DNA from: Nitrospirota bacterium
GTDB lineage: Bacteria; Nitrospirota; Nitrospiria; SBBL01; Manganitrophaceae
Direction: 5' to 3'
NCBI GenBank assembly: GCA_023248505.1
Contig: JAHFEM010000003.1
Span: 1-13,243 of the forward strand
Length of the DNA: 13,243 bases
Below, piece by piece: positions 2-12,793 of this stretch. The stretch's first letter is position 1, and each line of letters begins with the position of its first letter. The translations under genes were made by a program, and so were the position numbers. The notes beneath the pieces are model-generated. The model saw only the letters and a list, made by a program, of their open reading frames with translations. It searched no databases and was not told the origin of the DNA.

Positions 2-511
2 AGCAGCTCCCTGAATAGCCCCCGCGGCCTTACCGTTGATCTGACAAGGAGGACGCTCTATGTCGCAAACAACGGAGGCCACTCGGTCTTGGTCTTTAAG
101 AATGTGGACGAATTGACCGGATCGGTGACGGTCGCCCCGGACGCAGAGATCGGAGGGGTCGCCACCGGGATCAATGCGCCGGCCGCAGTAGCGATCGATT
201 CGGAGCGGGATCTATTGTATGTCTTGAATCAGGGAACCACGGAGATACTAATCTTCGAACAGGCTTCCACTCAGAACGGAAACAGCGCCCCCGCCCGCAT
301 CATCTCCGGCGACGGCTTCATGCAGACCCCCTCTGCGATCTTCCTCGATCCGGAGAGCGACCTTCTTTATGTCGCGGATAAAGGAAGCAATGCCATCTAT
401 GTCTTCACGGGGGCGAGCGAGGCGGAAGGTCAAGCCAACCACAAAACCCTTTCGGGTAATAACACCGCCCTGAACCAACCGACGGCGCTCTTCGTCGACA
501 CGACCCAATAA
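2..511 (+). CDS. Beta-propeller (NHL/YVTN-like) repeat protein, 3' end only
   Basis: The reading frame is open from the left edge of the window, so the start and N-terminal part are missing. About 169 residues are visible. They contain three clear propeller units of roughly 45-55 residues. Each has a P-x-x-[IVL]-x-[IVL]-D turn followed by a strand of the type LLYVADKGSNAIYVF (LYVANNGGHSVLVF, LLYVLNQGTTEILIF, LLYVADKGSNAIYVF). A fourth unit stops just after LNQPTALFVD, which is expected if the last blade is closed by N-terminal strands (velcro closure). No Cys and no haem motif occurs in the visible part. The function is unknown; such propellers usually serve as binding or scaffold domains in exported proteins. 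It converges on the leftward cytochrome block and is probably a separate transcription unit, though the shared propeller theme suggests a related role. Confidence 0.8.
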   Translation, partial: SSSLNSPRGLTVDLTRRTLYVANNGGHSVLVFKNVDELTGSVTVAPDAEIGGVATGINAPAAVAIDSERDLLYVLNQGTTEILIFEQASTQNGNSAPARIISGDGFMQTPSAIFLDPESDLLYVADKGSNAIYVFTGASEAEGQANHKTLSGNNTALNQPTALFVDTTQ

Positions 512-518
512 TCGATCC

Positions 519-562
519 GATCCCATTTTATCGTCAGAACAAAGACGGCCCGGGCTCTTTCT
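519..562. terminator. Possible weak bidirectional terminator at the convergent junction
   Basis: Between the two convergent stop codons lies an imperfect palindrome, AAAGA-(CG)-GCCCGGGC-TCTTT (about 541-560), with AAAGA/TCTTT arms around a GC-rich core. No long T-run follows on either strand, so intrinsic termination would be weak. Its position between convergent genes is the main support. Confidence 0.25.
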
Positions 563-1373
563 AATCGTTTTTCGCGCAGCGGAACCCGAGGAAAGGATAG
601 CGCGCGGTCGGCTCGACGTTCTGTCGGAAGGAAAGGCGGGAAAAAATCGAAAGGGAATAGTGGCCCGACTCTCCGAAGGCGTCGCCCTTGGCCACTTTGA
701 ATTGCTCTCCGAAATCAGGGCTTTGATAATCTCCCCCCGGATAGGGCTGATACCAGTCGGAAACCCACTCCATGACGTTTCCATTCATATCGAACACGCC
801 GTAGAAACTCCGATCCTCTTTCCATTGTCCCACCGGGGTGATATCGCCGTGGCCGCCGGCGCTGACATTGGCCTTCTTGGCATCGAATTGATTTCCCCAG
901 GCGTAGAGATACCCATGCGGCCCCCGCGCCGCCTTCTCCCATTCCGCCTCGGTCGGCAGGCGTTTTCCCTTCCATCGGCAGTAGTCTTCGGCCTCAAACC
1001 AGGTCACGTCAACCACCGGAAAGCGGGCCTCTCCCTCCGGATAGCGCCCTTCCTTCCAGGAAGGAGGCGGCTTCCGTTGACGCTTTTGGACAAACTCCGA
1101 ATAATCCTGATGCGTCACCTCGTATCGATCGATGAGGAAGCCGCCAAGGGAGACCTTCCGCTGCGGATGCTCATCGAGATACCACGGCTTTTTGTTCCCG
1201 AACTCCCCTTGGCTCTCGGAGGAGTCGACATCATTGCTTCCCATGATGAACTCACCGGCGGGGACAAAGACCATCTCGGGTGGGATTTCCCGCTGTCGCG
1301 TGAAAAAGAAAAAAAAGAGTCCAACGGAAACGAGGACAAAGAGAGAGAGGAGAATTACTTTTTTGAAAGACAT
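561..1373 (-). CDS. Membrane-anchored FGE/SUMF1-fold protein, catalytic Cys region not conserved
   Basis: The 270-aa product has an N-terminal hydrophobic segment (residues 6-24) after two lysines, so it is probably anchored in the inner membrane or exported. Residues about 33-268 match the formylglycine-generating enzyme/sulfatase-modifying factor family: FVPAGEFIMGS (36-46), DEHP (67-70), Y-E-V-T (84-87), VTWFEAEDYCRWKGKRLPTE (123-142), AEWEKAARG (143-151), YAWGN (157-161), FDMNGNVMEWVSDWY (194-208) and C-terminal LGFRCA (262-267). True FGEs have a RGGSW block and a nearby active-site Cys pair before the GFR motif. Here that stretch reads VAKGDAFGESGHYSLSIFSR and contains no Cys; only Cys132 and Cys266 remain. 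I infer it is not a formylglycine-generating oxidase but one of the many family members with a binding, structural or other role. The ATG lies 2 bp past the dodecaheme stop and has no strong ribosome-binding site, suggesting translational coupling. It is the last gene of the leftward block. Confidence 0.85.
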   Translation of the reverse strand: MSFKKVILLSLFVLVSVGLFFFFFTRQREIPPEMVFVPAGEFIMGSNDVDSSESQGEFGNKKPWYLDEHPQRKVSLGGFLIDRYEVTHQDYSEFVQKRQRKPPPSWKEGRYPEGEARFPVVDVTWFEAEDYCRWKGKRLPTEAEWEKAARGPHGYLYAWGNQFDAKKANVSAGGHGDITPVGQWKEDRSFYGVFDMNGNVMEWVSDWYQPYPGGDYQSPDFGEQFKVAKGDAFGESGHYSLSIFSRLSFRQNVEPTARYPFLGFRCAKND

Positions 1374-1375
1374 TG

Positions 1376-4300
1376 CTATTTCTGGCCGTTTACGACGGAG
1401 TGGGCGTCGTAGTTGAACCGCATCTTAAACCCGTGGCAGCGGAGGTTGCATCCCGGGCCCTTCCGACCCGCGATGCCGGTATACTCGTCCCCCGTAGAAG
1501 AGCCGGGTCCGTTGACCATCTGACCGGCCCCCCACATCGGTTGGCTGGAAGGACGGTCCGGATTTCCTGTTATGTTCGGCTGGAAATTGATCAGGTGGGT
1601 ATCGACATTGTGGCCGGGATTGTCGGTCGTAAATGTGGAGGTATTGACACCGACATAGATTGTATTCCCCGCTTCGACATTGCTATGGACATTGTTGTGG
1701 CACTCGTGACAGCGGGCATTGGTTCGGCCGACCAAGTGCAACATGTGGAGATTCCCCCCGTCGTTGCCCTGGCCGTCTACATTTTGCGTCCCGCCGCGAT
1801 AGAAATTGGTCAGACGCTCCTTCGGAGCGCGCTCCGAAGCGCTTCCCCACCACGGCGTGATGAAGGCCGCTTCCGCATGGCAGTTAAAACAAAGGGCAAA
1901 ATTCTGAGAATTGTAGGTGGCGCTTGCATGCCCCGTAACGCTGCTGCTTGTATTATCAAGAAGGCTATCCCCTATCAATGCCTGGGTGGCCGTCCCAATC
2001 TTCGTATCATAGTTGGCTCGAAGGATTCTCTTGTAGATCGACCCATGCGGCCCCTGCGCCGTTTTCGGGTCGTTGAGGCTCGCCGTCCGTGTCCCTCCCT
2101 CCGGATTGACAGGAATATCGTTTGGAACATCGGTTGGACGGCGATAGGCGCTCCCCCGCGTGTCGTCAAAGGTAATCGGCCCCGGGTAATCGGGGCAGTG
2201 CGTGTTTTGGCTTCCATCGAAACAGGTCTGCATGGTTGGAAATCCATTCAGGGCGAATGCGATTAAATTGGGGATACCCCCCAGGTAGGTTCCGAACAGA
2301 TCGGTGTTGTGGCAATCGGTGCAGTGGATCGTCTTCTCACGGCTCAACCCCATTCTCCCGAGGAGTTGTCCCTGCTGCGTCGGAACCGACATGTTGTTCG
2401 TGTAATTGTTCAAGACGCCCGATTGGTTTCTCGCAGGCTGAAAGACCGGATGGAACGAATGGTTAAACCGGGGCGGGTTCGGATCGGGGAGGAAGCTGTT
2501 CGGATCGGACGGATTCAGGATTTTGAAATTCTCCGGATAGAAGGGGACGGAGGTCGGATCGAACTCTTTCCGCTTATTGCTGCCGTGCGCGTTGACGCCG
2601 AGCGCCGGGTTAACCGGGCTGTTCCCGCGCGCCTGGACCGTCTTGCCGGTGCCGACCGCCGTGAAAAGAGACTCACGGACATGATTATTGAACGTATTTC
2701 CGTGGCAGCGGAGGCAGACCTCATAGATATACGGCTCCCGACGCTCATCGACCGACTTGAGGGTTTCGGCGACGATGCCTCCCTTGATCGTGACCCCCGG
2801 CATCCCCTGGAAACGATTCCGCCGGGTCACCCGGTGCATGTTGTGGCAGTCGACGCATTCGACATGGGAGGTGTCCGGGGACGAAGGGGCATTTTCGGTG
2901 AGTGATTTATTGTTGGCCGGTTCGGCAAAGGGGCCGCCGAAGAAAGACGGCATCCGGTTGTCGCTTCCCAATTGGACCCCTTCCTTCGGAAGATCGACGA
3001 AGACCGGCTGATGGCCGAGCGCCAGGGTCAGATCCATCGCGCTCCCCGTCGGAGAGGTTCCATGATTGCCGTTCCCTTCCCGGTCTTTGAAAAACTGGGT
3101 CATAATGTCGGGCGCCCGTGTCGGGGCTTGGAGGATCGACGTTTCCTGCGGCTGATGACACTGGAAGCAGGTCTGCTCAATCGCCACGTTTCCAAATTTA
3201 TCGACCCCTTCCCGCATGATGCGGACCGCTCCCTGCCGGGTGTGCGGATCGTGGCAGACAAGGCAAGCCCGCTCCGCGACGGCCGGGGCTTCGCTGTTGT
3301 GGAGATTGGTCGCCCCCGGCTTCAGGTGCGAGTCGTCGAACTGCCCCGTCGGCCGATCGCCGAAGTGCGAATTCAGATCGGCGGCATTGTAAGGCCATCC
3401 CGGCTTGTCGTGGCAGAAGAGGCAGATGATCGCCCCGCCTCCCTTCGGGGGGGCTTCCGTGCCGGGCGAACCGGGGTGTTTCTCCCCCTGGGTGGTGGCG
3501 AAGGTCATCGATTGAAGCCGGTTGGCCCGAAGGAACTTCGGAAAATCGACCTGATGCGGATTGTGACAAGAGGTGCACTGAACGGAGTCGAAGACATCGG
3601 TGCTGTTCCCGGTCGCCCTCCGCAGCGGGGCGATCGGCGTCGGCGTGCTCTGCGTAAACGGGCGCCGGATCGGGGGGCCGGGATTGACGAACTCGGCGTC
3701 TTTGGACAACAGCTCGGTATCGAATCTCATCGAGATCGGATGATCGTTCCGGAGGTCCCGGCCCAAAACGCGGGTGGCCTGGGCGTTCACCCCCTCGCCG
3801 ATCGGCATGCTTCCGGGAGGTCCCGCCGGGGTCTGACCGGTCGGATACTCCATCTCATACGGGGTGCTGTTGAGCCCCCCGCTCCCCCCCTTGTTGACGA
3901 CGCTGCCGAGGGCGATGGTGCCGTCGTGGCAGGAGAGGCAGAGGCGGGAGTATCCGGTCGGGCGGCCCGGATCATTCGGCTTCGCCTCGAACGACTTGCT
4001 CCAGACCTGGTCATACATTTGGTAATGGGCCGGGGAGAGATTCCGGTTCCAGATCGGCGCCCGGATCTTCACCCCCTCCTGGCTGGCGCCATGCGGGGTA
4101 TGGCAGAAGACGCAGACTTCGGTGGTTCCGTTCGGACCGGCGGCCGATCTGATGTTTCGCTCCAGGTCGGGATCGAAGAGGTGCTGAAAGAGGGCCGGAT
4201 TCGGAACCGGGTTCGCCGAGAGGTTGTGTTTGGTATTGCTGACATCCTCGTTAAACGGCTCGACCGTCGGCTGGGCGGAGGAAGGGGTCCGGAAGGGAAC

Positions 4301-4393
4301 GCCCAGAAGCGACAAGGCGATCGTTCCCACCAGAAAGAGAAGAACAATCAACACTCCATAGACGCCGATGCTTGACCTGAACTTTCCCCTCAT
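1376..4393 (-). CDS. Dodecaheme c-type cytochrome (about 1005 aa), exported
   Basis: A large multiheme cytochrome. An N-terminal hydrophobic segment (about residues 10-31) acts as a signal; a cleavage near TPSSA-Q (40/41) is possible. There is no lipobox Cys. Eleven CXXCH motifs start at residues 94, 152, 273, 324, 377, 409, 513, 560, 691, 835 and 895, and a CX3CH motif (CNLRCH, 982-987) lies near the C-terminus, giving up to 12 haems. Many His residues are available as distal ligands, e.g. NTKHNLSANP (53-62) and DLRNDHPIS (213-221). The first part (CVFCHTPH, CLSCHDG, DLRNDHPIS, CTSCHNPH) aligns by eye with the tetra- and pentaheme cytochromes in this window; the rest is an extension. The likely role is electron transfer in the periplasm or at the cell surface. 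The ATG at 4391-4393 is used here; an in-frame TTG at 4394-4396 is equally close to GGAG (4407-4410) and cannot be excluded. It has its own promoter upstream and is coupled to the FGE-fold gene. Confidence 0.93.
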   Translation of the reverse strand: MRGKFRSSIGVYGVLIVLLFLVGTIALSLLGVPFRTPSSAQPTVEPFNEDVSNTKHNLSANPVPNPALFQHLFDPDLERNIRSAAGPNGTTEVCVFCHTPHGASQEGVKIRAPIWNRNLSPAHYQMYDQVWSKSFEAKPNDPGRPTGYSRLCLSCHDGTIALGSVVNKGGSGGLNSTPYEMEYPTGQTPAGPPGSMPIGEGVNAQATRVLGRDLRNDHPISMRFDTELLSKDAEFVNPGPPIRRPFTQSTPTPIAPLRRATGNSTDVFDSVQCTSCHNPHQVDFPKFLRANRLQSMTFATTQGEKHPGSPGTEAPPKGGGAIICLFCHDKPGWPYNAADLNSHFGDRPTGQFDDSHLKPGATNLHNSEAPAVAERACLVCHDPHTRQGAVRIMREGVDKFGNVAIEQTCFQCHQPQETSILQAPTRAPDIMTQFFKDREGNGNHGTSPTGSAMDLTLALGHQPVFVDLPKEGVQLGSDNRMPSFFGGPFAEPANNKSLTENAPSSPDTSHVECVDCHNMHRVTRRNRFQGMPGVTIKGGIVAETLKSVDERREPYIYEVCLRCHGNTFNNHVRESLFTAVGTGKTVQARGNSPVNPALGVNAHGSNKRKEFDPTSVPFYPENFKILNPSDPNSFLPDPNPPRFNHSFHPVFQPARNQSGVLNNYTNNMSVPTQQGQLLGRMGLSREKTIHCTDCHNTDLFGTYLGGIPNLIAFALNGFPTMQTCFDGSQNTHCPDYPGPITFDDTRGSAYRRPTDVPNDIPVNPEGGTRTASLNDPKTAQGPHGSIYKRILRANYDTKIGTATQALIGDSLLDNTSSSVTGHASATYNSQNFALCFNCHAEAAFITPWWGSASERAPKERLTNFYRGGTQNVDGQGNDGGNLHMLHLVGRTNARCHECHNNVHSNVEAGNTIYVGVNTSTFTTDNPGHNVDTHLINFQPNITGNPDRPSSQPMWGAGQMVNGPGSSTGDEYTGIAGRKGPGCNLRCHGFKMRFNYDAHSVVNGQK

Positions 4394-4420
4394 CAAATCC
4401 GCTTCTCCACCCCGGCAAAC

Positions 4421-4449
4421 AATATAATGACCGGTCCTTCTTTTGTCAA
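4421..4449 (-). promoter_or_regulatory. Sigma70-type promoter for the dodecaheme gene
   Basis: Reading leftward: TTGACA (4444-4449), a 17-bp spacer, then TATATT (4421-4426). The predicted start is near 4414, giving a leader of about 20 nt before the ATG with GGAG in between. The -35 is part of TTGACAAAAG, which recurs in both promoters of the divergent region near 11.4 kb. It lies in the gap after the preceding NHL gene, so the dodecaheme and FGE-fold genes can be expressed independently of the upstream operon. Confidence 0.65.
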
Positions 4450-4482
4450 CACGGGAACCCCTTTGAAACCCATTTTGCCCCT

Positions 4483-5556
4483 TCAGCCTTGCGGGCCGGG
4501 AGAGAGATCCTTCCCCTCCAGCAGTTGAAATACCTGGACCCGTTGATTGTACGAATCGGCCACGTAAATCCGACCCTCTCGATCGATGGCGATCCCGGAA
4601 GGAAGCCAGAAGAATCCAGGCTCGACCCCCGACTTTCCAAAATGGAGGAGAAGTTCCCCGGACGAATTAAAGATCTGAACGTTATCATAGAGCGTATCCA
4701 CGACATAGAGATGATTCGCCCGATCGACCGCGATCCCCTTCGGCCGGGAGAATTGACCCAATGTCGCTCCCAGGCTCCCGATCTGAGATTGAAATTTTCC
4801 GTCCGGATCGAACACCTGCACCCTGAAGTTGAGCGAGTCGGAGACATAGAGGCGGCCCGCTTCATCGACGGTGGCATAGGTCGGATAATTCAGCTCGCCG
4901 TCGCCCGTCCCCCGTTTTCCGATCGTCCCTTTCTTTTCTCCGGAAAGGGTATAGATCAGGACCTGATGCCCCATCGTATCGACGATATAAAGCCGCTCCC
5001 GCGATCGATCGATCGCAATCCCCGAAATCCGATGCATCTCCTCGTTTCGGCCGATGACCCGGACCGATTCCCCCTTCGTATCGAAGACGAAGACCCGGTT
5101 GAGATCTGCATCGGCGACATAGAGCCGCCTCGATGCGTCGACGGCCACCCCGATCGGATTCTTCAATCGTCCATACGGCTCCGGGAGCCGAAAATATTGT
5201 TGATACTGATGCAACGTCTGATTGAAGTGGTGGACGACCTGCAGCCCCGTGTCGGCGATGTAGACCCCCCCCTCCTCATCGACCGTAATCCCGGAGGGGC
5301 GAATCACATGAGGGGCTTCCCCCTCCCCGAATAAAAAGTTGATGACCTTTTTAAACCAGGAGGGCTTCACCCCGGCATCTTTCGGCTCGGTCAGGTTTTG
5401 AACAAACGTGACCTTCGGCGGATCGGGCGGCTCCGGCCAGAAAAGGGTCGGACGTTTCTCGACCGGCGCCTCCGCGCAAGCGGCTAAACTCAATAGGACG
5501 GCTCCGATCAGACCGTTTCGAAACAGGGCTCTTGATCCTATTCTTTTCCCCCTCAC
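4483..5556 (-). CDS. Six-bladed NHL beta-propeller lipoprotein (second copy)
   Basis: The 357-aa product begins with a basic n-region and hydrophobic stretch ending in the lipobox LAAC (Cys27), so it should be a lipid-anchored envelope protein. A linker (EKRPTLFWPEPPDPPKVTF) leads to six NHL-type blades, each with P-x-G-[IV]-x-[IV]-D, a turn, and [LI]YVAD-x-x-x-x-RVxVF, for example IGVAVDASRRLYVADADLNR and SGIAIDREGRIYVADSYNQR. There is no haem motif. It is a clear paralog of the NHL lipoprotein at 9272-10411. The start is GTG (5554-5556), with GGGAGG (5565-5570) 8 bp upstream; both sit inside a tandem heptamer repeat. It lies 19 bp after the beta-barrel gene. NHL proteins commonly accompany extracellular cytochrome loci; the precise role here is unknown, and scaffold or docking for the conduit is inference. 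Confidence 0.88.
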   Translation of the reverse strand: MRGKRIGSRALFRNGLIGAVLLSLAACAEAPVEKRPTLFWPEPPDPPKVTFVQNLTEPKDAGVKPSWFKKVINFLFGEGEAPHVIRPSGITVDEEGGVYIADTGLQVVHHFNQTLHQYQQYFRLPEPYGRLKNPIGVAVDASRRLYVADADLNRVFVFDTKGESVRVIGRNEEMHRISGIAIDRSRERLYIVDTMGHQVLIYTLSGEKKGTIGKRGTGDGELNYPTYATVDEAGRLYVSDSLNFRVQVFDPDGKFQSQIGSLGATLGQFSRPKGIAVDRANHLYVVDTLYDNVQIFNSSGELLLHFGKSGVEPGFFWLPSGIAIDREGRIYVADSYNQRVQVFQLLEGKDLSPGPQG

Positions 5557-5571
5557 GCCTCACGCCTCCCG
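5551..5571 (-). repeat. Tandem heptamer repeat (CGTGAGG) carrying RBS and GTG start
   Basis: Three consecutive 7-mers on the minus strand: CGGGAGG, CGTGAGG, CGTGAGG. The first supplies the GGGAGG ribosome-binding site and the third the GTG start of the NHL lipoprotein gene. The same GGGAGGCGTGAG word occurs at 12639-12650 and related words occur at 10306-10390, so this is a dispersed low-complexity repeat of this genome. Confidence 0.6.
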
Positions 5572-5575
5572 TTCT

Positions 5576-7423
5576 TCAAAACACCCGGCTCGCTCTCGCA
5601 AAGAGGGTTTCGCTTCGGAAAACAACCCCCGCCGAGCGGTCATTGGCCCAGCGATGATCGAGATTGAAAATGAACTTCCCGATCTGGTACGCCAGCACGG
5701 TGGTGACCTCCAGCGTATCCCGATCGAGCGAGACATCTCCATCCCCCCGCTGATGGCTGTCGCGGGCCCCGACGGTCACGTTTGCATTTCCAACGTAGAA
5801 ATTCCACTGGATCTCTTCATAGTAGATATCCGAGTCCAAATAAAATCCTTCCGGATAATCTTGCCGGGTCCATCCCGCGCCCAGGAGCCCGCCGCCGAGA
5901 AAATAATAATTTCCCCGAACGTCGATCATGAAGGAGCTCCCCTCCGGTCCGAAGCCCTGGATCCGGGTGAGGCTCGAAGAGGCTTGGAGAAAGAGGCTGT
6001 CGTCCCTCAGAAGAAGCCCGCGGAAATAGCTGCTGTCGACGTTGACCTGGAAGAGATGCGACCGCTGGTCGTCCTCCGGCTGGACGGTCCGGCTGGTCCG
6101 GTTGATATCGTTGAAGGTGTACCCCAGGGCGATATGGACGATTCGGACCTGCGTGTTCTCAACCCCCAGTGTGATCGTGTTCATTAAATCTTTCAGCCGG
6201 TCGTCCTGAGGATCTCCCAAATTATTCCGGGAGGTATCGGCCGTGCCGTAGCTTAAAGCATAGCTGGCGCTGTAACGCAGGATCTCGACCGACCGGGTGT
6301 AGTTTACATAGCCGCGGTACCGCTGATAGAAAGAGGCGAGCTCGGCCCCGTTCCCCTCGGTCCGCGTCTCCCCCCACGACCCTCCAAAACCGGTGCTCAA
6401 CCCAAAGAAGGGGCGGTAATTGAGGTTAAAATCGCCGAAGGGAGAGGAGGTTTTCGTATCGCTCACCTCAAATTGAAAATACCGGATGCTCGTCACCATG
6501 TCGAGCAGTTCGGTCGGCCGGATCGAGCCGCTCCAGAAAGCGTTCATCCTCTTGAGGTTGACCGTATCGGGCGTTTCGGAGTATTCGACCCGCGCATGGG
6601 TATCCCAGTAAATGCTCGGGGTGTAGAAAAGGGCGGCGCCGATCCCCCGTTCTTGGGAGAAGGTCAGCCCCGGCGCGTTCACCCCGCCGACACTGGCGTA
6701 ACGGGTGAAAGTGCTCAACGAAAGGGCCGGCGCGAGACGGCTCTCGGTATTGAGATTCACCCCCTGCCCATGGATGGCGTCCACCTCTCCGTCCGTCCTC
6801 GCCACATCCGTTTGGTTGAATTGATACCGGCCGATCACCGTGGTCTCCCCCACCTTGCCGCTCGATTCGACATCGAAGTACCGGCTCAGGGTATCGGGGA
6901 AACGATTGGGATCGTTCGCCCTCAGCTCCGACTGGTTGTATGAAAGCGCCAGCCGCGGAAGCCGGGGAATCGAAAGAGACCAATTCGCCCCATAAGTGGT
7001 GACCGTGTCCTTTACAACGACATCGAGCTGATTGGAGCGGGTGACCCGTTGAGCGTAAAAACTAAATGGAGAAACATAGGGGAAGAGATTCAACGCGAGA
7101 GAGTAATCGGTGAAGTTGAAATTCTGTTCCGTGGAATCGCCTTTCGATTGCGTGTCCTGGCTGAGGAACGTCCCGTTCAACGAGAAGGTCCCCAGCCGCG
7201 GATCGAGGATCTCTCCATAATTATGGAGATTATATCGCTGCTGAAGAAAGCTCGTCTCGGTAACGGCCTCTTGCTGGGTCGTGCGAATGAGCCCGTACGT
7301 CACATCCGCGCTCCCGCCCAGATTGAGGAGCCGTCCATCCGCCCGCGAAGGGAAAAAGAAGACCGCCGGGAGGGAAAGAAACAAAAAGAGCATTCCGATC
7401 CAAAGATAGTGTTTCTTCTCCAA
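5576..7423 (-). CDS. Outer-membrane beta-barrel protein (porin-like conduit candidate)
   Basis: The 615-aa product has a signal peptide (hydrophobic residues 7-24, likely cleavage near SRA-DG at 28-29). The rest is alternating polar and hydrophobic strands rich in Tyr, Phe, Ser, Asn and Thr, with short charged loops, typical of a large transmembrane beta-barrel. It ends in Val-Phe; a C-terminal Phe is the outer-membrane assembly signal. I see no Cys, so it does not bind haem, and it lacks the N-terminal CXXC found in MtrB. Its length is in the range of the barrels of porin-cytochrome conduits (MtrB/PioB/OmbB class), but primary-sequence similarity to any one family is not clear by eye. The start is TTG (7421-7423), chosen because GGGGGAGG lies 9 bp upstream; an ATG 10 codons later has a poorer site. 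It sits between the SurA-like chaperone and the second NHL lipoprotein. I infer it is the pore through which the cytochromes pass electrons or are exported. Confidence 0.82.
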   Translation of the reverse strand: MEKKHYLWIGMLFLFLSLPAVFFFPSRADGRLLNLGGSADVTYGLIRTTQQEAVTETSFLQQRYNLHNYGEILDPRLGTFSLNGTFLSQDTQSKGDSTEQNFNFTDYSLALNLFPYVSPFSFYAQRVTRSNQLDVVVKDTVTTYGANWSLSIPRLPRLALSYNQSELRANDPNRFPDTLSRYFDVESSGKVGETTVIGRYQFNQTDVARTDGEVDAIHGQGVNLNTESRLAPALSLSTFTRYASVGGVNAPGLTFSQERGIGAALFYTPSIYWDTHARVEYSETPDTVNLKRMNAFWSGSIRPTELLDMVTSIRYFQFEVSDTKTSSPFGDFNLNYRPFFGLSTGFGGSWGETRTEGNGAELASFYQRYRGYVNYTRSVEILRYSASYALSYGTADTSRNNLGDPQDDRLKDLMNTITLGVENTQVRIVHIALGYTFNDINRTSRTVQPEDDQRSHLFQVNVDSSYFRGLLLRDDSLFLQASSSLTRIQGFGPEGSSFMIDVRGNYYFLGGGLLGAGWTRQDYPEGFYLDSDIYYEEIQWNFYVGNANVTVGARDSHQRGDGDVSLDRDTLEVTTVLAYQIGKFIFNLDHRWANDRSAGVVFRSETLFARASRVF

Positions 7424-7451
7424 ACGGAGCGTTCCTCCCCCCAGGCGTTCT

Positions 7452-7513
7452 GTAGGGGCGCACCGATGTGCGCCCGAGACACAGAGAGGGCAGACACGCG
7501 GGTCTGCCCCTAC
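7452..7513. repeat. Palindromic REP-like element with two hairpins (TAGGGGC...GCCCCTA)
   Basis: A 62-bp element bounded by GTAGGGGC (7452-7459) and GCCCCTAC (7506-7513). Inside are two perfect 8-bp stems: GGGCGCAC/GTGCGCCC (7456-7463 with 7468-7475, loop CGAT) and GGGCAGAC/GTCTGCCC (7488-7495 with 7502-7509, 6-nt loop). The outer arms can pair only if the inner stems open. It lies in the 104-bp gap between the chaperone and barrel genes, inside the operon. No T-run follows, so it is unlikely to be a full terminator, but it may stabilise or attenuate the mRNA. Elements with TAGGGGC ends are, to my knowledge, dispersed in many environmental bacterial genomes. Confidence 0.75.
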
Positions 7514-7527
7514 CCCTACCCTTTAAA

Positions 7528-8091
7528 TCAATAAATTTTAATTTCCGATCTCTTTCGAACCCCTTCCAACCAATTCCTTTTCTCCGCCTCATCCGACGGA
7601 GAAATCTCGCTCCACATCTTTCGGACCAGGATGAAGCGGCGAACCCCCTCCCTTACCGCGTCGAGCGTAAGCCCCTCTCGAACCAGCGCCGCATCGAAAT
7701 CGCGCTCATCCGGAAACCGTTTTCGGATTCGATCGACCTCCGCTTCGATCTCCTCGGGAGAGATCTTCCCTCCTTGCTTCAGCGCCTCCTGGTAAATCAA
7801 CTCCTCGTCAATGAGTCGCTCCAGCACTTCTCTCCGCAAGCGCATCATCCTCGAAGGGGAAAGCTCTTTGTGGCCGATCTGGCGCAGATAGTTTCGGACC
7901 TCCCTTTCAACGGAGCTCGCCGGGATCGGGATCCGATTGACCTGCGCGGCCGGCGCCGGATCTTCCGACCGCGCTGCCTGCAGCGCGGCGATGAGAAGAT
8001 AAACGGCACAGAGACAAAAAAGTAAAAAAGGCCTTCGTCCGCCCCGACGGCGCCGATCTTTTCCAGCCTGCCGGCCCTTTGCCTCCTTCAT
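7528..8091 (-). CDS. SurA N-domain-like periplasmic chaperone lacking a PPIase domain
   Basis: The 187-aa product has a very basic N-terminus (KDRRRRGGRR, 11-20), a hydrophobic signal or anchor (21-40), then a helical domain resembling the N-terminal chaperone module of SurA/PpiD-type foldases. Recognisable elements are a short V-N-R-I-P-I strand (51-56), a helix ending LRREVLERLIDEELIYQEAL (85-104), [KIS]PEEIEAEVDRIRKRFPDE (109-129), and a final FILVRKMWSEI helix (153-163). The parvulin rotamase domain that normally follows is absent: the protein ends about 24 residues later at IKIY. It starts with an ATGA overlap with the tetraheme gene and precedes the outer-membrane barrel gene. I infer it is a dedicated chaperone for the barrel or for exported cytochromes. 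PPIases and related chaperones are known in some extracellular cytochrome clusters. Confidence 0.8.
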   Translation of the reverse strand: MKEAKGRQAGKDRRRRGGRRPFLLFCLCAVYLLIAALQAARSEDPAPAAQVNRIPIPASSVEREVRNYLRQIGHKELSPSRMMRLRREVLERLIDEELIYQEALKQGGKISPEEIEAEVDRIRKRFPDERDFDAALVREGLTLDAVREGVRRFILVRKMWSEISPSDEAEKRNWLEGVRKRSEIKIY

Positions 8092-9275
8092 TTTTTATGA
8101 CAGCTCAAACAAACCAGGCTCCCTGCATTCCGGTTTTGCGGATTGGCCCCCGGCATTGAAGCCATCCTGAGAAAGAGACTGTTATTGACCGTTTGGGGGT
8201 TGATCGGCTCGGAGAGGGCCGGCTGCCCGCTGGGCCGACTCGCATCATGCGGATTGTGGCAAGAAGCGCATTCGATGTAGGGGGCATCGGGACGATTGGG
8301 ATCGGAAGGGTAGGCCCGGATTCGATCGCGTTTATCCAACGGCAAAAAGGCGCCGTTTGGATTTCGATCAATCCACATCACACTTCCACTTCCCGGAATG
8401 CGTCCCCCTTTGGAGTTGATATTCGTCAGGATCTCGCGAAACTGCGGATCCGTTCGGGGGATCTCGATGCTCACCGGATGATCATCCCGCAGATCGAGGC
8501 CCAGGTTCGGGAACGGCTCGGCCCCCAACGACGCATTCGGTCCTCCCCCGAAAGCATCGAAGAAGACGAATCCTCCCGCCGAATCGTCCCGGCGCCCCTC
8601 TCGAAAGCTGTTCGTAGCATCCACCGCCGGGCCCGAGAAGGTCATCCCGACGCTTCCCCCCGCCCCGTTGAAAACCCGGTTGCTCGGGAAGAAGCCCCCC
8701 GACCCGGAGCTGTTGATCAGCGCATCAAAGGCGACCGCGCCGTCATGACAGGAGAGGCAGGCCAGCGAGACCCCCTTCGGCCGACCCGGCGTCCCAAGCA
8801 TATCTTGCGCATCATAGTTGGGGCTGGTATAGGGGGAAAAGGCCATCGGATTGGAAAGGCGGCGATTCCAAAGGGGGGCGATTCCGGTCACCCCGCCGAC
8901 GTTGCTCCGCGCGGCGTGGGGGGTGTGGCAGAAGATACAGACCTCTTCATTCAAGCGGATATCTCCTTCGATGCCGCGCACCTCCGGGTTGCGCGCGCCC
9001 CGAAGCGAGGTCAGCTCGCCCGCCTTGAGGTCGCTTCCTTCTCCTGCGAGAATATCGGGGTTCGCGGCGAGATTGTGCTTGGTATGCCGCACATCTTCAA
9101 ATGCAAAGACATTCAAAAGCGAAAGCGCCGTTCCGGCCAGCGTCAAGAGAAGGAGAACGCCCTGCCTTCGCGAGCAAAGCGCTGATGGAAGCGCCTCCCC
9201 GGCCCGGGAGAGAAAGCGCCCGATCCGGCTGGAGGTTCCCCTCTGCCGATCAGAGAATCCGCGGCGCGTGATCAT
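8088..9275 (-). CDS. Tetraheme c-type cytochrome, exported
   Basis: The 395-aa product has a long basic N-terminus (residues 1-38) before a hydrophobic signal (about 39-58, possible cleavage after VFA). Four CXXCH motifs start at residues 113 (CIFCHTPH), 173 (CLSCHDG), 336 (CASCHNPH) and 389 (CLSCHKK, at the extreme C-terminus). Conserved words shared with the other two large cytochromes are TKHNLAANP (65-73), APLWNRRLS (133-141) and DLRDDHPVS (261-269), which contain likely distal His ligands. The 160-residue gap between haems 2 and 3 is rich in Gly, Asn and Phe. The ATG overlaps the stop of the upstream NHL gene by 4 bp (ATGA), and its own stop overlaps the chaperone start the same way, so three genes are translationally linked. 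The ribosome-binding site GGAGG (9286-9290) is complementary to CCTCC just before the ATG and may be partly masked. Confidence 0.92.
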   Translation of the reverse strand: MITRRGFSDRQRGTSSRIGRFLSRAGEALPSALCSRRQGVLLLLTLAGTALSLLNVFAFEDVRHTKHNLAANPDILAGEGSDLKAGELTSLRGARNPEVRGIEGDIRLNEEVCIFCHTPHAARSNVGGVTGIAPLWNRRLSNPMAFSPYTSPNYDAQDMLGTPGRPKGVSLACLSCHDGAVAFDALINSSGSGGFFPSNRVFNGAGGSVGMTFSGPAVDATNSFREGRRDDSAGGFVFFDAFGGGPNASLGAEPFPNLGLDLRDDHPVSIEIPRTDPQFREILTNINSKGGRIPGSGSVMWIDRNPNGAFLPLDKRDRIRAYPSDPNRPDAPYIECASCHNPHDASRPSGQPALSEPINPQTVNNSLFLRMASMPGANPQNRNAGSLVCLSCHKK

Positions 9276-10411
9276 GAGGGAGGTTCCTCCGGTTTCTCAT
9301 TTTTTTCCTTTGGACCGATATATTGGAAGATATTAATCCGATGATTGTACTGGTCGGCAATATAGATCCGATCTTGATCGTCGATGGAGAGGCCGGCCGG
9401 CAGCCAGAACTGCCCGTTCTTGCTTCCGAACTCTCCGAAGAATAGAAGGAGCTTCCCCTCCGGGCTGAAGATTTGGACATTGTTGAAGCGGGAATCGACG
9501 ACATAAATATGTCCTTGGGAATCGACCCCGATCCCCTTTGGAAGGGAGAACTGCCCGAAACCGGTTCCGACATTCCCAAACTTGAAGAGGAATTTTCCGG
9601 TGGGATCAAAAATCTGAACCCGGAAGTTCATATCGGTGACATAGACCTTTCCGGAGGCATCGATGAAGAGGTTCGCCGGGAAGTTGAATTCGCCGTCCTC
9701 CGCGCCGCGTTTTCCGAATTCAAACAGGAAATTTCCCTCGAAGTCGTAGACAAAAACCTGATGCTTTCGCGTATCGGCAATGTAGACCTGCTTCAGCGCA
9801 TCGTTGACGGCCACACCGACCGGACGTTCGAGACGGTTTAAATCTCCGATCGTAAAAAGGTATTTCCCCTCTGTATCGTAGACAAGACATTTGCGAAGGA
9901 CCGTATCGGTGACGTAGACCAGTCCACCCTTGTCGACGGCGACCCCCATCGGCCCGGCGAGGGCCCCCGGGCCGTCGACGCCGATCATCGAGAAGCGCCC
10001 CTGCCGGGCATCGAAAACCAAGATTTTTCTCCAACCCGAGTCGGCCACATAAAGACGCCCTTCCGGCGTGGCAAAAACGCCATACGGCTTCACCAGCTTG
10101 GCGCCGGAGGAGCCTCCGAAGAGGGCCGCTTTGATCCGCTCTCCCCACCCTTTTCTCTCGACATCTTCGGAAGAATCGATGCTCGAGAGGAACTTCACAC
10201 GGGGTGTTTCGGGGGGGGCGGGCCAGACCAGGCCCCGGTCGGGCGCTTGCGCCTTCCCGCCGCATCCGGCCAGGACGAGCAGGGACAGTACAAGAATTAA
10301 ATAACGGGAGGCGGAAGGCGGAAGGGGGGAGGCGGAAAGGCCAAAACAAATTCTTTCACCCCTCACGTCTAACGCCTCAGGCCTCACGCCTTCCTCATTC
10401 GTATAAAACAC
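9272..10411 (-). CDS. Six-bladed NHL beta-propeller lipoprotein (first copy)
   Basis: The 379-aa product has a lipobox LAGC (Cys50) after a hydrophobic run (37-49) and a linker ending VWPAPPETPRVKFL. Six NHL blades follow, e.g. VYVTDMNFRVQIFD, KGIGVDSQGHIYVVDSRFNN and AGLSIDDQDRIYIADQYNHR. It is paralogous to the NHL lipoprotein at 4483-5556; both share the proline-rich linker, FWLP[SA]G in blade 6 and a charged tail. The longest start is GTG (10409-10411), preceded by AGGAGG that overlaps the stop codon of the pentaheme gene (TAGGAGG), with only 4 bp spacing. This start gives an unusually long 36-residue n-region encoded largely by repeat sequence. Downstream GTG codons at residue 9 or residue 16 (10364-10366) would give a more normal lipoprotein signal. 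The role is unknown; an envelope scaffold for the cytochromes is inference. Confidence 0.87.
   Translation of the reverse strand: MFYTNEEGVRPEALDVRGERICFGLSASPLPPSASRYLILVLSLLVLAGCGGKAQAPDRGLVWPAPPETPRVKFLSSIDSSEDVERKGWGERIKAALFGGSSGAKLVKPYGVFATPEGRLYVADSGWRKILVFDARQGRFSMIGVDGPGALAGPMGVAVDKGGLVYVTDTVLRKCLVYDTEGKYLFTIGDLNRLERPVGVAVNDALKQVYIADTRKHQVFVYDFEGNFLFEFGKRGAEDGEFNFPANLFIDASGKVYVTDMNFRVQIFDPTGKFLFKFGNVGTGFGQFSLPKGIGVDSQGHIYVVDSRFNNVQIFSPEGKLLLFFGEFGSKNGQFWLPAGLSIDDQDRIYIADQYNHRINIFQYIGPKEKNEKPEEPPS
10306..10390. repeat. Degenerate GGAGGCGGAAGG / CCTCACG repeat cluster
   Basis: Two near-identical units, GGGAGGCGGAAGG (10306-10318) and GGGAGGCGGAAAGG (10327-10340), are followed by two CCTCACG words (10361-10367, 10382-10388). 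The segment is related to the heptamer repeat at 5551-5571 and the word at 12638-12650. It lies in the 5' coding part of the NHL lipoprotein gene and encodes the low-complexity Leu/Ser/Pro segment just before the signal hydrophobic stretch. Confidence 0.55.
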
Positions 10412-10419
10412 CTTTCCTC

Positions 10420-11226
10420 CTACTTCTGATGACAGGTCAAACAGAGGGCGCTTCCCCGATTGGAGGCCCTCAGAAAAGGATCCCGTCCCTCCATGTTCTT
10501 TTCATCCGGACTATGAATATCATGGCAGGAGGCGCATTGGACCTTGTCTCCCTCAAAGGTTTGAACCCCATTCGGGAACATGCGGCCCCCGTCGGGCTTG
10601 AGGATGGTCGGTTGATTGAACTGCGGATCAATATCCAGGGTCGGGTAGACCATTGAGATGGCGTGATCGTCCCGGAGATCCTTCGTGAAGTAACGGACCG
10701 TCGCATCGTGCGCCCCGGAAAGACCGCCATAGGCCCCTTCAGACCGATTATGGCACTTCGAGCAGGCATCGCTCCCCGGTTCACCTTCCAGGGTCATCCG
10801 ATAATGTGAGCCGGTTTCGACGGTATCATGAAATTGCGGCGGCTTGAGGACCGAATCGAGCGCCACCGACCCGTCGTGGCAGGAGAGACAGGCGAGGGAG
10901 ATTCCGTCCGGCGCTTTCGGGGGGACCGAATCGAAGTTGGGGCTGGAATACATCTGATAGCCCCGCTGCTGCGGAAGCTCTCGATTCCAGAGGGGAGCAA
11001 AGCTGCTGCTGTTATGAGGAGTATGGCAGTAGACGCAGGCCTCGCGGTAGTCGTTGAACGTCCCTCCCTGCATCGGGCCGGTCTCGTTCTGATACCCGCG
11101 CCAATTGAGTGCGGAGAGATCATGCCGGGATCGGATGATAGAACCACCCCTGGCCGAGGCGGAAACAAAGAGGATAAAACCGACGCTTCCCAACAAGATG
11201 AAAACTTGAATTCTCTTAAATGTCAT
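10420..11226 (-). CDS. Pentaheme c-type cytochrome, exported; first gene of the leftward operon
   Basis: The 268-aa product has a signal peptide (hydrophobic 7-22, likely cleavage after SASA at 22-25). Five CXXCH motifs start at residues 64 (CVYCHTPH), 113 (CLSCHDG), 155 (CSKCHN), 231 (CASCHDIH) and 262 (CLTCHQK at the C-terminus). Shared words with the tetra- and dodecaheme proteins are RHDLSAL (34-40), FAPLWNREL (76-84) and DLRDDHAIS (183-191). It is the shortest and simplest member of this cytochrome group. Compared with the tetraheme protein it has an extra haem between the second and the penultimate motifs. The start is ATG (11224-11226) with GGAG 10 bp upstream. It lies about 110 nt downstream of a strong promoter. 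Its stop codon overlaps the ribosome-binding site of the next gene. The role is inferred to be periplasmic or surface electron transfer. Confidence 0.93.
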   Translation of the reverse strand: MTFKRIQVFILLGSVGFILFVSASARGGSIIRSRHDLSALNWRGYQNETGPMQGGTFNDYREACVYCHTPHNSSSFAPLWNRELPQQRGYQMYSSPNFDSVPPKAPDGISLACLSCHDGSVALDSVLKPPQFHDTVETGSHYRMTLEGEPGSDACSKCHNRSEGAYGGLSGAHDATVRYFTKDLRDDHAISMVYPTLDIDPQFNQPTILKPDGGRMFPNGVQTFEGDKVQCASCHDIHSPDEKNMEGRDPFLRASNRGSALCLTCHQK

Positions 11227-11345: not shown

Positions 11346-11373
11346 ACTATAGTTTTTTTTACACTTTTGTCAA
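11346..11373 (-). promoter_or_regulatory. Sigma70-type promoter of the leftward operon
   Basis: Reading leftward: TTGACA (11368-11373), a 16-bp spacer containing an A8 run, then TATAGT (11346-11351). The predicted start is near 11339, giving a leader of about 110 nt. The first ten bases, TTGACAAAAG, are identical to those of the facing promoter and of the dodecaheme promoter. Confidence 0.65.
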
Positions 11374-11512: not shown

Positions 11513-11884
11513 ATGAAAAGTGTTCGGATCGGCATTATACTCGGATTAGGCCTTCTGCTGGCGTACATGTGGGGCGGCGATCGGGTGTCGGGGTACTACG
11601 GCGATATGGTCCTGAACAGCAAGGCTGAAAAACGGGGGATGCCGCCGGTGGTCTTCCCTCACTGGTACCATCGCGCGGAATTTAAGTGTAAGGTTTGCCA
11701 CCCTGCCATTTTTGAAATGCGGTCCGGGGCCAATGATATTGACATGAAAAAAATTATCATCGACGGACAATTTTGCGGAAAATGCCATAATGGAACCATT
11801 TCGTGGAAACCGATCGACTGCGGTCGCTGCCACTCCGGAACACCGGGGATGACGACAGGGGTTCTTGAAGGCTTTCCAAGATAG
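11513..11884 (+). CDS. Triheme c7-type cytochrome, exported
   Basis: The 123-aa product has an N-terminal hydrophobic signal or anchor (5-18). The C-terminal domain is c7-like: FPHWYHRAEFKCKVCHPAIF (48-67) with CXXCH motifs starting at residues 59, 88 (CGKCHNG) and 103 (CGRCHSG). The His-containing FPHWYH just before haem 1 is the usual distal-ligand motif. Small triheme c7 proteins are typically periplasmic electron shuttles between inner-membrane donors and outer-membrane conduits. The ATG at 11513 is chosen because AGGGAGG lies 4-5 bp upstream and the signal begins there; an in-frame upstream start at 11441 would overlap the promoter. It is 61 bp upstream of a second c7-type gene, likely co-transcribed. 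Confidence 0.9.
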   Translation: MKSVRIGIILGLGLLLAYMWGGDRVSGYYGDMVLNSKAEKRGMPPVVFPHWYHRAEFKCKVCHPAIFEMRSGANDIDMKKIIIDGQFCGKCHNGTISWKPIDCGRCHSGTPGMTTGVLEGFPR

Positions 11885-11945: not shown

Positions 11946-12626
11946 ATGGCTTGGGTAAAAGAACGAAAAAAATATCTCTATACCGGATGCTTGCTCATAC
12001 TTCTTTCCCTCACCACCCTCTATGCCTGCATCCGGCAAGCCAAGAGCGAAACGGCCAATCCGACGGCGGCACCTACACAGGTCGCGCAAGCCACGCCGGC
12101 TCAGGTGCCGGTTCAACCGCCTGCCCAAGCCAAAGAAAAAGATCTTTCGGCGCAGCCTCCTCTGATTGCTCCCCCGCCCTCCAGCGCCGTTCCGCAATTC
12201 GCTGATCCGACCAAGCTTCCCGAACCGGGACCTCCCTATAATCGGGACAACTCAAACGGAGATGTGGTGCTGAAAGATTTTCCGACCGATGCCGTCGGAG
12301 CGATCGATTGGGTCAAATCTTTTAAAGAAAATATGATTAAGCCGCACGAAGCGCTCGACCTCAATAAGCCGCCCGTTCCTCCGTTTATGTTCGATATCGA
12401 AATTCCGGCGGTCGGCTCCATGCCGAACGTGATTTTTCCGCACTTCCCGCATACCTTCTGGTTGGATTGTGCAAATTGCCACCCCGGCATCTTCATGATG
12501 AAGAAGGGGGGCAACCCTATCTCGATGGTCAAGATCGTCAACGGGGAATTTTGTGGGCGCTGCCATGGTCGGGTGGCTTTCCCTCTCGCGAACTGCACCC
12601 GTTGTCACGTCAAACCCAAGAGCTAG
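11946..12626 (+). CDS. Triheme c7-type cytochrome with Pro/Ala-rich linker, probable lipoprotein
   Basis: The 226-aa product has a hydrophobic signal (13-27) followed by LYAC, a plausible lipobox (Cys28). Residues about 35-100 are a Pro/Ala/Gln-rich, probably disordered linker. The C-terminal domain (about 150-226) matches the preceding c7 protein: VIFPHFPHTFWLDCANCHPG (162-181), then GEFCGRCHG (200-208) and CTRCH (217-221), three CXXCH in all. The design suggests a haem head tethered to a membrane by a flexible arm, able to span part of the periplasm; this is inference. The start ATG (11946-11948) follows GGGAGGG by 5 bp. A paralog of its upstream neighbour at the haem domain, it differs by the long tether. 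Confidence 0.9.
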   Translation: MAWVKERKKYLYTGCLLILLSLTTLYACIRQAKSETANPTAAPTQVAQATPAQVPVQPPAQAKEKDLSAQPPLIAPPPSSAVPQFADPTKLPEPGPPYNRDNSNGDVVLKDFPTDAVGAIDWVKSFKENMIKPHEALDLNKPPVPPFMFDIEIPAVGSMPNVIFPHFPHTFWLDCANCHPGIFMMKKGGNPISMVKIVNGEFCGRCHGRVAFPLANCTRCHVKPKS

Positions 12627-12684: not shown

Positions 12685-12793
12685 GGGTTTCTCCTGCTCA
12701 ATCCAAATGGGTCCGCTTCCAGGTTGTGATCGATTTTCCTCCTGTTCACTAAAACCTGAATCAACTGGAACGCCTCACCCGATCGATGCCAAA

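What the first reader, a model, noticed from the sequence alone, without database searches (positions are those of the whole stretch)
561..11226. Candidate porin-cytochrome-propeller conduit or cytochrome-export locus with a dedicated chaperone
Seen: one leftward block combining three multiheme cytochromes (5, 4 and 12 haem motifs), a Phe-terminated outer-membrane barrel, a SurA-N-type protein, two NHL lipoproteins and an FGE-fold protein, with ATGA overlaps at 8088-8091 and 9272-9275. Known: trans-outer-membrane conduits of the Mtr and Omb/Oma/Omc or Ext types combine a barrel with multiheme cytochromes, and some extracellular cytochrome clusters carry NHL and PPIase-type accessory genes. Inferred: this gene order, with duplicated propeller lipoproteins and a PPIase-less chaperone, may be a distinct variant.
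Basis: partly seen in the sequence, partly recalled or inferred. Interest (0 to 1): 0.75.

Follow-up and report, generated by a model that had tools for sequence, protein, structure and literature searches.

The report
Uet-type electron conduit in Manganitrophus relative
A block of genes in a relative of the manganese-oxidising bacterium Manganitrophus looks like a wire through the outer membrane, of a kind already described in electrode- and iron-oxidising bacteria, here with a trimmed-down folding helper and an extra surface cytochrome.

Summary
A leftward operon (561-11226) encodes pentahaem, NHL lipoprotein, tetrahaem, SurA-type chaperone, Phe-terminated barrel, second NHL lipoprotein, 12-haem cytochrome (11 CXXCH + 1 CX3CH) and FGE-fold protein. 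Two divergent trihaem genes belong to it. The genome shares a genus with Candidatus Manganitrophus (Nitrospirota). The gene set closely matches the published Uet (undecahaem electron transfer) pathway. A gammaproteobacterial locus of Uet-like order carries homologues of the parts, the barrel by profile comparison only. So this is best read as a Uet-type conduit; the 12-haem protein is not MtrA-family. The tetra- and pentahaem proteins are relatives of the nanowire subunit OmcE, with one invariant free His per haem. The gene order recurs across Nitrospirota. The PPIase-less chaperone is real: on the c12 tree the PPIase-less loci form one clade, pointing to a single loss. By elimination this is probably PCC_1, a published candidate for Mn(II) oxidation; if so, PCC_1 is the local version of a widespread conduit. 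Function, direction of electron flow and filament formation are inferred.

The parts
561..1373 (-). FGE-fold protein (sulfatase-modifying-factor-like), 270 aa, N-terminal membrane segment
   Evidence: PF03781 E=2.3e-55; next to c12 in the f1 and f5 loci whose contig reaches that far, up to three copies in other families
1376..4396 (-). c12: 12-haem doubled-CXXCH cytochrome (11 CXXCH + terminal CX3CH), UetJ-like, proposed trans-outer-membrane conductor
   Evidence: 12 invariant haem His and 15 invariant free His in 9 sequences; 32% identity over 507 aa, 195 bits, to the UetJ-like protein of L261
4483..5556 (-). NHL2: NHL beta-propeller lipoprotein, UetH/I-like
   Evidence: PF01436 E=6e-38; lipobox LAAC; 34% identity, 196 bits, to L261 NHL protein
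5576..7423 (-). outer-membrane beta-barrel, 615 aa, 30 predicted strands, C-terminal Phe, UetC-like by place
   Evidence: best Foldseek match 6r2q_B of the Mtr complex, E=8.4e-10, TM 0.39; hhalign probability 96.8 to a 9-protein gammaproteobacterial alignment, 28.8 to a 5-protein subset
7528..8091 (-). SurA-type periplasmic chaperone without PPIase domain, 187 aa, UetB-like
   Evidence: PF13624 E=4e-15; alignment shows the PPIase segment missing with both ends kept; full-length relatives have Rotamase domains
8088..9275 (-). c4: tetrahaem OmcE/UetA-like cytochrome, 395 aa
   Evidence: profile of 34 sequences hits OmcE 7tfs, E=1.5e-41; 4 invariant free His; 29% identity, 103 bits, to the UetA-like protein of L261
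9272..10411 (-). NHL1: NHL beta-propeller lipoprotein, UetH/I-like; start uncertain (the listed GTG has a good ribosome-binding site but puts the lipobox at residues 47-50)
   Evidence: PF01436 E=4e-30; lipobox LAGC and upstream sequence
10420..11226 (-). c5: pentahaem OmcE-like cytochrome, 268 aa
   Evidence: OmcE 7tfs E=9e-24; 5 haems and 5 invariant free His in 46 sequences
11346..11373 (-). sigma-70-like promoter match upstream of the operon (11 of 12)
   Evidence: TTGACA-16-TATAGT; 2 matches found in the region against mean 0.5, sd 0.8 in shuffles; consensus match only
11513..11884 (+). c7a: trihaem c7-type cytochrome, presumably periplasmic (listed ORF from 11441; likely start 11513)
   Evidence: TIGR04257 E=8e-17 over cut-off; ribosome-binding site at 11513; 46% identity, 119 bits, to L261 trihaem
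11946..12626 (+). c7b: trihaem c7-type cytochrome with N-terminal membrane segment and Pro/Gln-rich linker (listed ORF from 11919; likely start 11946)
   Evidence: TIGR04257 E=2e-16 over cut-off; ribosome-binding site at 11946; 45% identity, 114 bits, to L261 trihaem

Best explanation
This is a Uet-type electron conduit through the outer membrane. The barrel (UetC-like) forms the channel and the 12-haem cytochrome (UetJ-like) sits in it as the wire. The OmcE-like tetrahaem and the pentahaem work on the cell surface; one of them is the UetA counterpart. The trihaem proteins c7a and c7b carry electrons across the periplasm. The SurA-type protein brings barrel or cytochrome to the outer membrane, and the NHL lipoproteins hold or cap the complex. 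In this Manganitrophus relative it most likely runs inward, taking electrons from Mn(II) or Fe(II) outside. Shown here: the gene set, homology, synteny, haem and ligand counts, and the PPIase loss. Inferred: who sits where, direction of flow, and substrate.
For: The gene set closely matches the described Uet set: UetJ with 11 or 12 motifs and doubled CXXCH, tetrahaem UetA, PPIase UetB, porin UetC, trihaems UetDEG, NHL UetHI (PMC10734462, passages; Tenderia trihaem, TPR and undecahaem tags in PMC5371394, passages). A gammaproteobacterial locus (L261) runs tetrahaem, SurA-PPIase, ORF in the barrel's place, two trihaems, two ORFs without Pfam match, two trihaems, NHL, undecahaem. BLASTP of the window proteins against 12 proteins of L261 and L263 (bits, because E-values there are for 12 proteins only) gives c12 195, NHL2 196, c7a 119, c7b 114, c4 103, SurN 40. 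The barrels match only profile to profile (probability 96.8 over 525 columns). L263 has NHL1, tetrahaem, two trihaems, a 675-aa ORF, NHL2, then 11 CXXCH + CX3CH. In Nitrospirota, NHL2 is the next family gene after the barrel in 35 of 38 loci with a called barrel (one gene between in two of them), and the other 3 end within 1.1 kb. The barrel's top Foldseek match is in the Mtr complex.
Confidence: 0.73

Rival explanations
1. Cytochrome-filament export locus. The 30-strand barrel is a secretion and assembly channel for the OmcE-like c4 and c5, which polymerise outside. SurA-type protein, propellers and FGE-fold protein are assembly helpers, and c12 is the base that feeds the filament.
For: c4 and c5 are relatives of the nanowire subunit OmcE with one invariant free His per haem, as a His-shared filament would need. 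PMC12954529 (passages) states that OmcE has an interfacial haem ligated by the neighbouring subunit. c4-type genes are in 2-3 copies in the five f10 loci.
Against: A monomer with its own ligands would have the same His count. The c4 model failed (pLDDT 45), so no interface could be examined. c12 and the trihaems are explained better by a conduit.
Confidence: 0.15
2. Same conduit, but running outward: disposal of electrons to Mn(IV) or Fe(III) oxides or partner cells when oxygen is low.
For: There is some evidence that Mto/Mtr conduits can run both ways (PMC10734462, passage). The module occurs in many Nitrospirota families, not only in Mn(II) oxidisers.
Against: Manganitrophus grows by Mn(II) oxidation (PMC9040806, abstract and passages), and Uet is discussed as an electron-uptake route (PMC10734462, passages).
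Confidence: 0.2
3. A member of MtrCAB/MtoAB or of Geobacter Omb/Oma/Omc or Ext.
For: Barrel plus multihaem cytochromes; the Mtr complex is the top Foldseek hit.
Against: c12 scores 33.8 against the DmsE/MtrA-type family cut-off of 192.2. Proteins over that cut-off, with barrel-sized ORFs beside them, exist elsewhere in G001, G003 and G013 and the neighbouring ORFs are not matched by our barrel profile. Geobacter conduits were not compared.
Confidence: 0.04
4. The barrel is a general solute porin that happens to lie beside cytochromes.
For: No family match for the barrel; many porins in the fold list.
Against: It stays beside NHL2 in 35 of 38 loci with a called barrel, and the other 3 are cut by contig ends.
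Confidence: 0.02

Closest known systems
Uet (undecahaem electron transfer) pathway, Ca. Tenderia electrophaga, some Gallionella and Leptothrix relatives (PMC10734462, PMC13386937, PMC5371394, passages)
   Same: Tetrahaem, SurA/PPIase-family protein, barrel in that order; trihaem c7-type cytochromes; NHL propellers; 11- or 12-haem doubled-CXXCH cytochrome. A locus of Uet-like order has homologues of the parts, the barrel by profile only.
   Different: Extra pentahaem and FGE-fold gene; chaperone lacks its PPIase domain; trihaems are divergent, not inside the operon, and two in number; no TPR gene seen.
PCC_1 of Ca. Manganitrophaceae (porin-dodecahaem complex proposed for Mn(II) oxidation, PMC9040806)
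   Same: Probably this very locus: the only porin plus 12-haem cluster that I found with two cytochrome models in the genomes of SB1 and noduliformans.
   Different: The paper says PCC_1 is not found in Nitrospirota outside the family. Our locus has syntenic homologues across the phylum.
Geoalkalibacter ferrihydriticus cluster with MtoA/MtoC-like cytochromes, an OmcE homologue and two NHL proteins (PMC12016550, passage)
   Same: OmcE-type cytochrome and two NHL proteins with larger cytochromes in one locus.
   Different: Its large cytochromes are described as MtoA/MtoC-like; sequences were not compared here.
PCC4 of neutrophilic iron oxidisers (PMC5566968, passages)
   Same: Porin with three multihaem cytochromes, of 4, 5 and 10 haems.
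   Different: PCC4 has a conserved inner-membrane protein and no extracellular cytochrome; sequences were not compared here.
OmcE filament of Geobacter (PDB 7tfs)
   Same: c4 and c5 are sequence relatives; the c4 profile aligns over all four OmcE haems and their free His.
   Different: c4 is longer through insertions, c5 has a fifth haem, and polymerisation is untested.
MtrAB/MtoAB
   Same: Barrel plus long multihaem cytochrome; weak fold match to the Mtr barrel.
   Different: c12 is not of the MtrA/DmsE family; the barrel is predicted with 30 strands against 26 in MtrB (recalled).
SurA / PpiC-type chaperones
   Same: SurA N-terminal domain and C-terminal tail.
   Different: PPIase domain absent, lost once on the tree examined.

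Membership tests
Uet pathway | 11-12-haem doubled-CXXCH cytochrome (UetJ) | tested here: met
   11 CXXCH + 1 CX3CH, PF09699 E=5e-18; 195 bits to the undecahaem of L261 against 84 to its tetrahaem
Uet pathway | extracellular tetrahaem (UetA) | tested here: met
   c4, 4 haems, 103 bits to the L261 tetrahaem (85 to its undecahaem), same place before the SurA-type gene; c5 is an equal candidate by similarity to L263; extracellular location not tested
Uet pathway | peptidyl-prolyl isomerase (UetB) | tested here: inconclusive
   Homologous SurA-type protein in the same place, 40 bits to L261, but the PPIase domain is absent in the window; present in 8 of 8 outgroup proteins tested
Uet pathway | beta-barrel porin (UetC) | tested here: inconclusive
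   Barrel in the same place, 30 strands predicted; profile match probability 96.8 with 9 proteins but 28.8 with 5
Uet pathway | trihaem cytochromes (UetD/E/G) | tested here: met
   c7a and c7b, 46% and 45% identity to L261 trihaems; two in the window, not three
Uet pathway | NHL proteins (UetH/I) | tested here: met
   Two NHL lipoproteins, 196 and 176 bits to the L261 NHL protein
Uet pathway | comparison with the named Tenderia locus | not testable with these tools
   Eddie 2022 not held; no named Tenderia record reached
PCC_1 of Manganitrophaceae | the one porin-dodecahaem cluster shared by Mn1 and SB1 | tested here: inconclusive
PCC_1 of Manganitrophaceae | not found outside the family | tested here: not met
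   Syntenic homologues of the window locus in other families of class and phylum; the paper's search threshold may explain this
MtrAB/MtoAB | DmsE/MtrA-type decahaem (TIGR03508 over 192.2 bits) | tested here: not met
   c12 scores 33.8 bits
MtrAB/MtoAB | MtrB-type barrel fold | tested here: inconclusive
Geobacter Omb/Oma/Omc and Ext | sequence homology of barrel and cytochromes | not tested
   No Geobacter conduit sequence was fetched
PCC4 | conserved inner-membrane protein in the cluster | not tested
   Known here only from passages of PMC5566968
OmcE-type nanowire | sequence homology and four haems each with a distal His | tested here: met
   c4: 4 haems, 4 invariant free His, OmcE E=1.5e-41; that these His are the ligands is inferred
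OmcE-type nanowire | polymerises into a filament with a His shared between subunits | not testable with these tools
   c4 model pLDDT 45

The most novel reading that the evidence does not exclude
In a manganese-oxidising autotroph, the OmcE-like tetra- and pentahaem proteins form mixed or alternating surface filaments docked on a Uet barrel with its 12-haem wire. Electrons from Mn(II) in the mineral crust would then enter through a nanowire, and the published Mn(II)-oxidation candidate PCC_1 would be one lineage's copy of a conduit shared between phyla.
Probability: 0.25. Interest if true: 0.85.

Novelty: new variant of a known kind. Interest (0 to 1): 0.55.

Why it matters
How Manganitrophus takes electrons from Mn(II) is an open question, and PCC_1 is a published candidate said to be unique to its family. 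Placing it, by elimination, in the Uet family gives a concrete model and named partners: surface OmcE-like cytochromes, a 12-haem wire, trihaem carriers, a chaperone and propellers. It also suggests which other Nitrospirota may exchange electrons with solids. The natural loss of the PPIase domain with both chaperone ends kept is a ready test of what that domain does in cytochrome-barrel assembly.

Tried and rejected
General porin, MtrAB/MtoAB and Ext readings were weighed and set aside for the reasons given above (Ext and Omb without a sequence comparison). A structure model of c4 failed (pLDDT 45) and was not searched. c12 found no match among plasmids, and the barrel profile found only a chance-level lectin among PDB sequences (E=0.09). 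A c7a-profile scan of genome contigs (80 loci kept of 109) was meant to reach Uet loci. The loci titled as other phyla showed the trihaem pair but no barrel, c4, c5 or c12 profile hit within the fetched stretch, and several Nitrospirota loci likewise, so the trihaems alone are no marker of the conduit. The 24-haem protein of the own genome (L238) was checked as an alternative PCC_1. It occurs in 2 of 9 genomes tested, so it is not. A 265-292-aa tetrahaem, seen beside no barrel-profile match or large haem protein in the five genomes whose neighbourhood was tabulated (G001, G004, G005, G013, G015), was also set aside; G003 has a match to it and G000 only a contig-edge fragment. Foldseek and VIA-align lists cannot decide the barrel's family: many unrelated barrels score alike.

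Rows left out: of 26 genomes matched, 20 regions were fetched. Of 72 matched, 20 further regions from 19 genomes were fetched. So 40 loci were tabulated; in 2 of them (L088, L089) the barrel was below the cut-off. Of 23 genomes matched, 11 were fetched as 12 regions, and G408 separately, whose regions show NHL, tetrahaem, 7- and 8-haem proteins but no complete Uet set. Only L261 of the 12 regions has a SurA-profile hit. The c5 alignment used 43 of the 120 listed of 2627 hits, plus the window and two loci. The seven genomes were chosen by me from those with the locus; G002, which lacks a barrel match, was not among them.
Full report
What is there. The window is the first 13243 bases of a 17904-base contig in a 2.61 Mb metagenome-assembled genome, 72% complete. 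Its relatives in the same genus include G001 and G005. The window is therefore from a Manganitrophus relative in Nitrospirota (lineage). Two trihaem genes on the other strand, facing away across an intergenic region with a promoter-like match, belong to the set.

The cytochromes. c5 and c4 are relatives of OmcE, the Geobacter filament subunit: c5 E=9e-24, c4 profile E=1.5e-41. In 46 aligned c5-type sequences exactly five free His are invariant for five haems. In 34 c4-type sequences exactly four are invariant for four haems. Each haem can thus have a second His. This fits a filament in which one His is shared between subunits (OmcE, PMC12954529, passages), but does not show it. c12 begins with an OmcE-like stretch (E=6e-12 to 7tfs) and has 12 invariant haem His and 15 invariant free His in 9 sequences. 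Its last motif is CX3CH. In the 12 gammaproteobacterial regions the corresponding protein has 11 CXXCH plus one CX3-4CH motif in 8, 11 CXXCH alone in 3 (L261, L264, L265), and 10 in L266, where the region's end cuts it. In the 7 of these 8 checked, the extra motif is CX3CH near the C-terminus.

The chaperone. The window protein has the SurA N-terminal domain only. Of ten relatives scanned, the 8 from outside families f1 and f5 carry Rotamase domains and the 2 from f1 and f5 lack them. An alignment of 10 short and 10 long proteins shows a clean absence of the PPIase segment, with the C-terminal tail of the (S/A)EIKIY type kept in the window and several relatives. On a tree of 28 c12 proteins, the 12 loci with a short chaperone (f1 and f5) form one side of a branch with 100/100 support against 13 with the long form. 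The simplest account is one loss. Several long branches make the deeper tree unsure.

Conservation. The barrel profile matches 72 of 395 genomes of the phylum (53 of 169 genera). Weak hits at the end of that list are not proven relatives. In one search, 26 of 58 relatives match; G002 of the same genus, the four genomes of families f2-f4 in the same order, and the genomes of family f6 do not. I fetched 40 loci. In 38 the barrel was called. NHL2 is the next family gene downstream in 35 (one gene between in L070 and L084); in the other three the contig ends within 1.1 kb. In the 13 loci of f1 and f5 the order c5, NHL1, c4, SurA-type, barrel, NHL2, c12, FGE holds wherever the contig reaches, with c7a and c7b divergent where present (L023 has split frames). 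Farther out the SurA-type gene is missing in some loci that do have upstream sequence (L073, L075, L078, L080, L085), and cytochrome genes can be duplicated or moved.

What it works like, and membership. The Gallionellaceae paper (PMC10734462, passages) describes the Uet complex: UetJ (11 and 12 motifs, doubled CXXCH), tetrahaem UetA, PPIase UetB, porin UetC, trihaems UetDEG, NHL UetHI. The Tenderia paper (PMC5371394, passages) gives neighbouring tags for trihaems, a TPR gene and the undecahaem. The full published order I know only through these letters and tags, since Eddie 2022 is not held. A search of 99 genomes in the order of a genome titled Gammaproteobacteria (23 with a match) gave loci to test. 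L261 has tetrahaem, SurA-PPIase, ORF in the barrel's place, two trihaems, two ORFs without Pfam match, two trihaems, NHL, undecahaem, with another NHL gene on the opposite strand. This is close to the implied Uet order, with a fourth trihaem and no recognised TPR. Direct comparison (bits, since the E-values there refer to 12 proteins) gives c12 195, NHL2 196, c7a 119, c7b 114, c4 103 and SurN 40; the barrel matched only profile to profile. The OmcE-like cytochromes and the propellers cross-match each other, so pairing is firm only for the undecahaem and the trihaems, and whether c4 or c5 is the UetA counterpart is open (place favours c4; the L263 tetrahaem is closer to c5). A 5-sequence subset of the gammaproteobacterial barrels scored far worse, so the barrel's homology is likely but not settled. 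MtrA/MtoA membership fails on the haem protein (33.8 against 192.2 bits). Omb/Oma/Omc, Ext and PCC4 were not compared by sequence.

PCC_1. Yu and co-workers (PMC9040806, section 9 and passages) proposed PCC_1, one of three porin-dodecahaem clusters of strain Mn1 (noduliformans, recalled) and the only one of the three in SB1 and SA1, as central to Mn(II) oxidation. In G001 (noduliformans) I find two decahaem clusters over the DmsE/MtrA-type cut-off, each with a barrel-sized ORF (L227, L228). By these models they are absent from SB1 (G005) and G004. The window-type locus is present in all seven genomes that I chose for this search, which were picked because they had it. So the window locus is probably PCC_1, about 0.65 by my judgement. 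Against this, the paper calls all three dodecahaem while the two others I see have 10 CXXCH. It also says that PCC_1 differs in arrangement between freshwater and marine genera and is absent outside the family, and clusters of other cytochrome families could have escaped my models. If the identity holds, the claim of restriction to the family needs revision, since homologous loci in the same order occur in other families of the class at about 30-43% identity for barrel and c12.

What is in print. Searches for Manganitrophus with porin and cytochrome (4 papers), for Nitrospirota with multihaem and NHL (none), for Uet, undecahaem and Nitrospirota (2 papers) and a broader one (30 of 76 papers listed) showed no title or start of abstract that links Manganitrophaceae with Uet or OmcE. 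In PMC13264449 (passages) Manganitrophaceae and undecahaem cytochromes are both cited, apart from each other. The library lacks most subscription papers. Eddie 2022, Yu and Leadbetter 2020, the OmcE structure paper and the 2023 filament paper were not held, so absence in print is not claimed beyond these searches.

Verdict. It has notable variant features, namely a PPIase-less chaperone, an added pentahaem and an FGE-fold partner, and a likely link to Mn(II) lithotrophy. Function remains inferred. On checking, I lowered the main confidence from 0.75 to 0.73 for the cross-matches noted above.

Noticed in passing
window 2-511 (+): C-terminal end of a propeller protein (Lactonase/NHL by its relative L024:1-2634); longer relatives of 841-880 aa, cut at the region's end, converge on the FGE gene in f1 loci L022, L024 and L025.
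   Followed up: partly
window 12707-13243 and contig to 14682 (L021): RHS-repeat-like protein followed by a two-component-regulator-type propeller protein; relatives of the first stay next to c7b in f1 and f5 loci. Possible further members of the system.
   Followed up: partly
L238:829-2622 (G000:C488): 24-haem protein of 597 aa in the window's own genome, shared only with G002 among 9 genomes tested.
   Followed up: partly
L227:6955-10152, L228:6799-10169: Two DmsE/MtrA-type decahaem clusters with barrel-sized ORFs in the noduliformans genome, absent by these models from SB1.
   Followed up: partly
L115-L168, many loci: c7a/c7b trihaem pair, often with a third small protein of 2 CXXCH + 1 CX3-4CH, in loci titled Deltaproteobacteria without a Uet cluster within the fetched stretch.
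   Followed up: no
L265, L266: Gammaproteobacterial loci with NHL, tetrahaem, 8-haem, 7-haem and 18- or 24-haem proteins and a UetJ-like protein: apparent expansion of the module.
   Followed up: no
L023, L117, L190 (GAC4): c12 and FGE frames are split in the GAC4 genome, probably sequencing indels; described only.
   Followed up: no
window 561-1373: The FGE-fold protein has only two Cys (132, 266), so the usual catalytic Cys pair of formylglycine enzymes (recalled) seems absent.
   Followed up: partly
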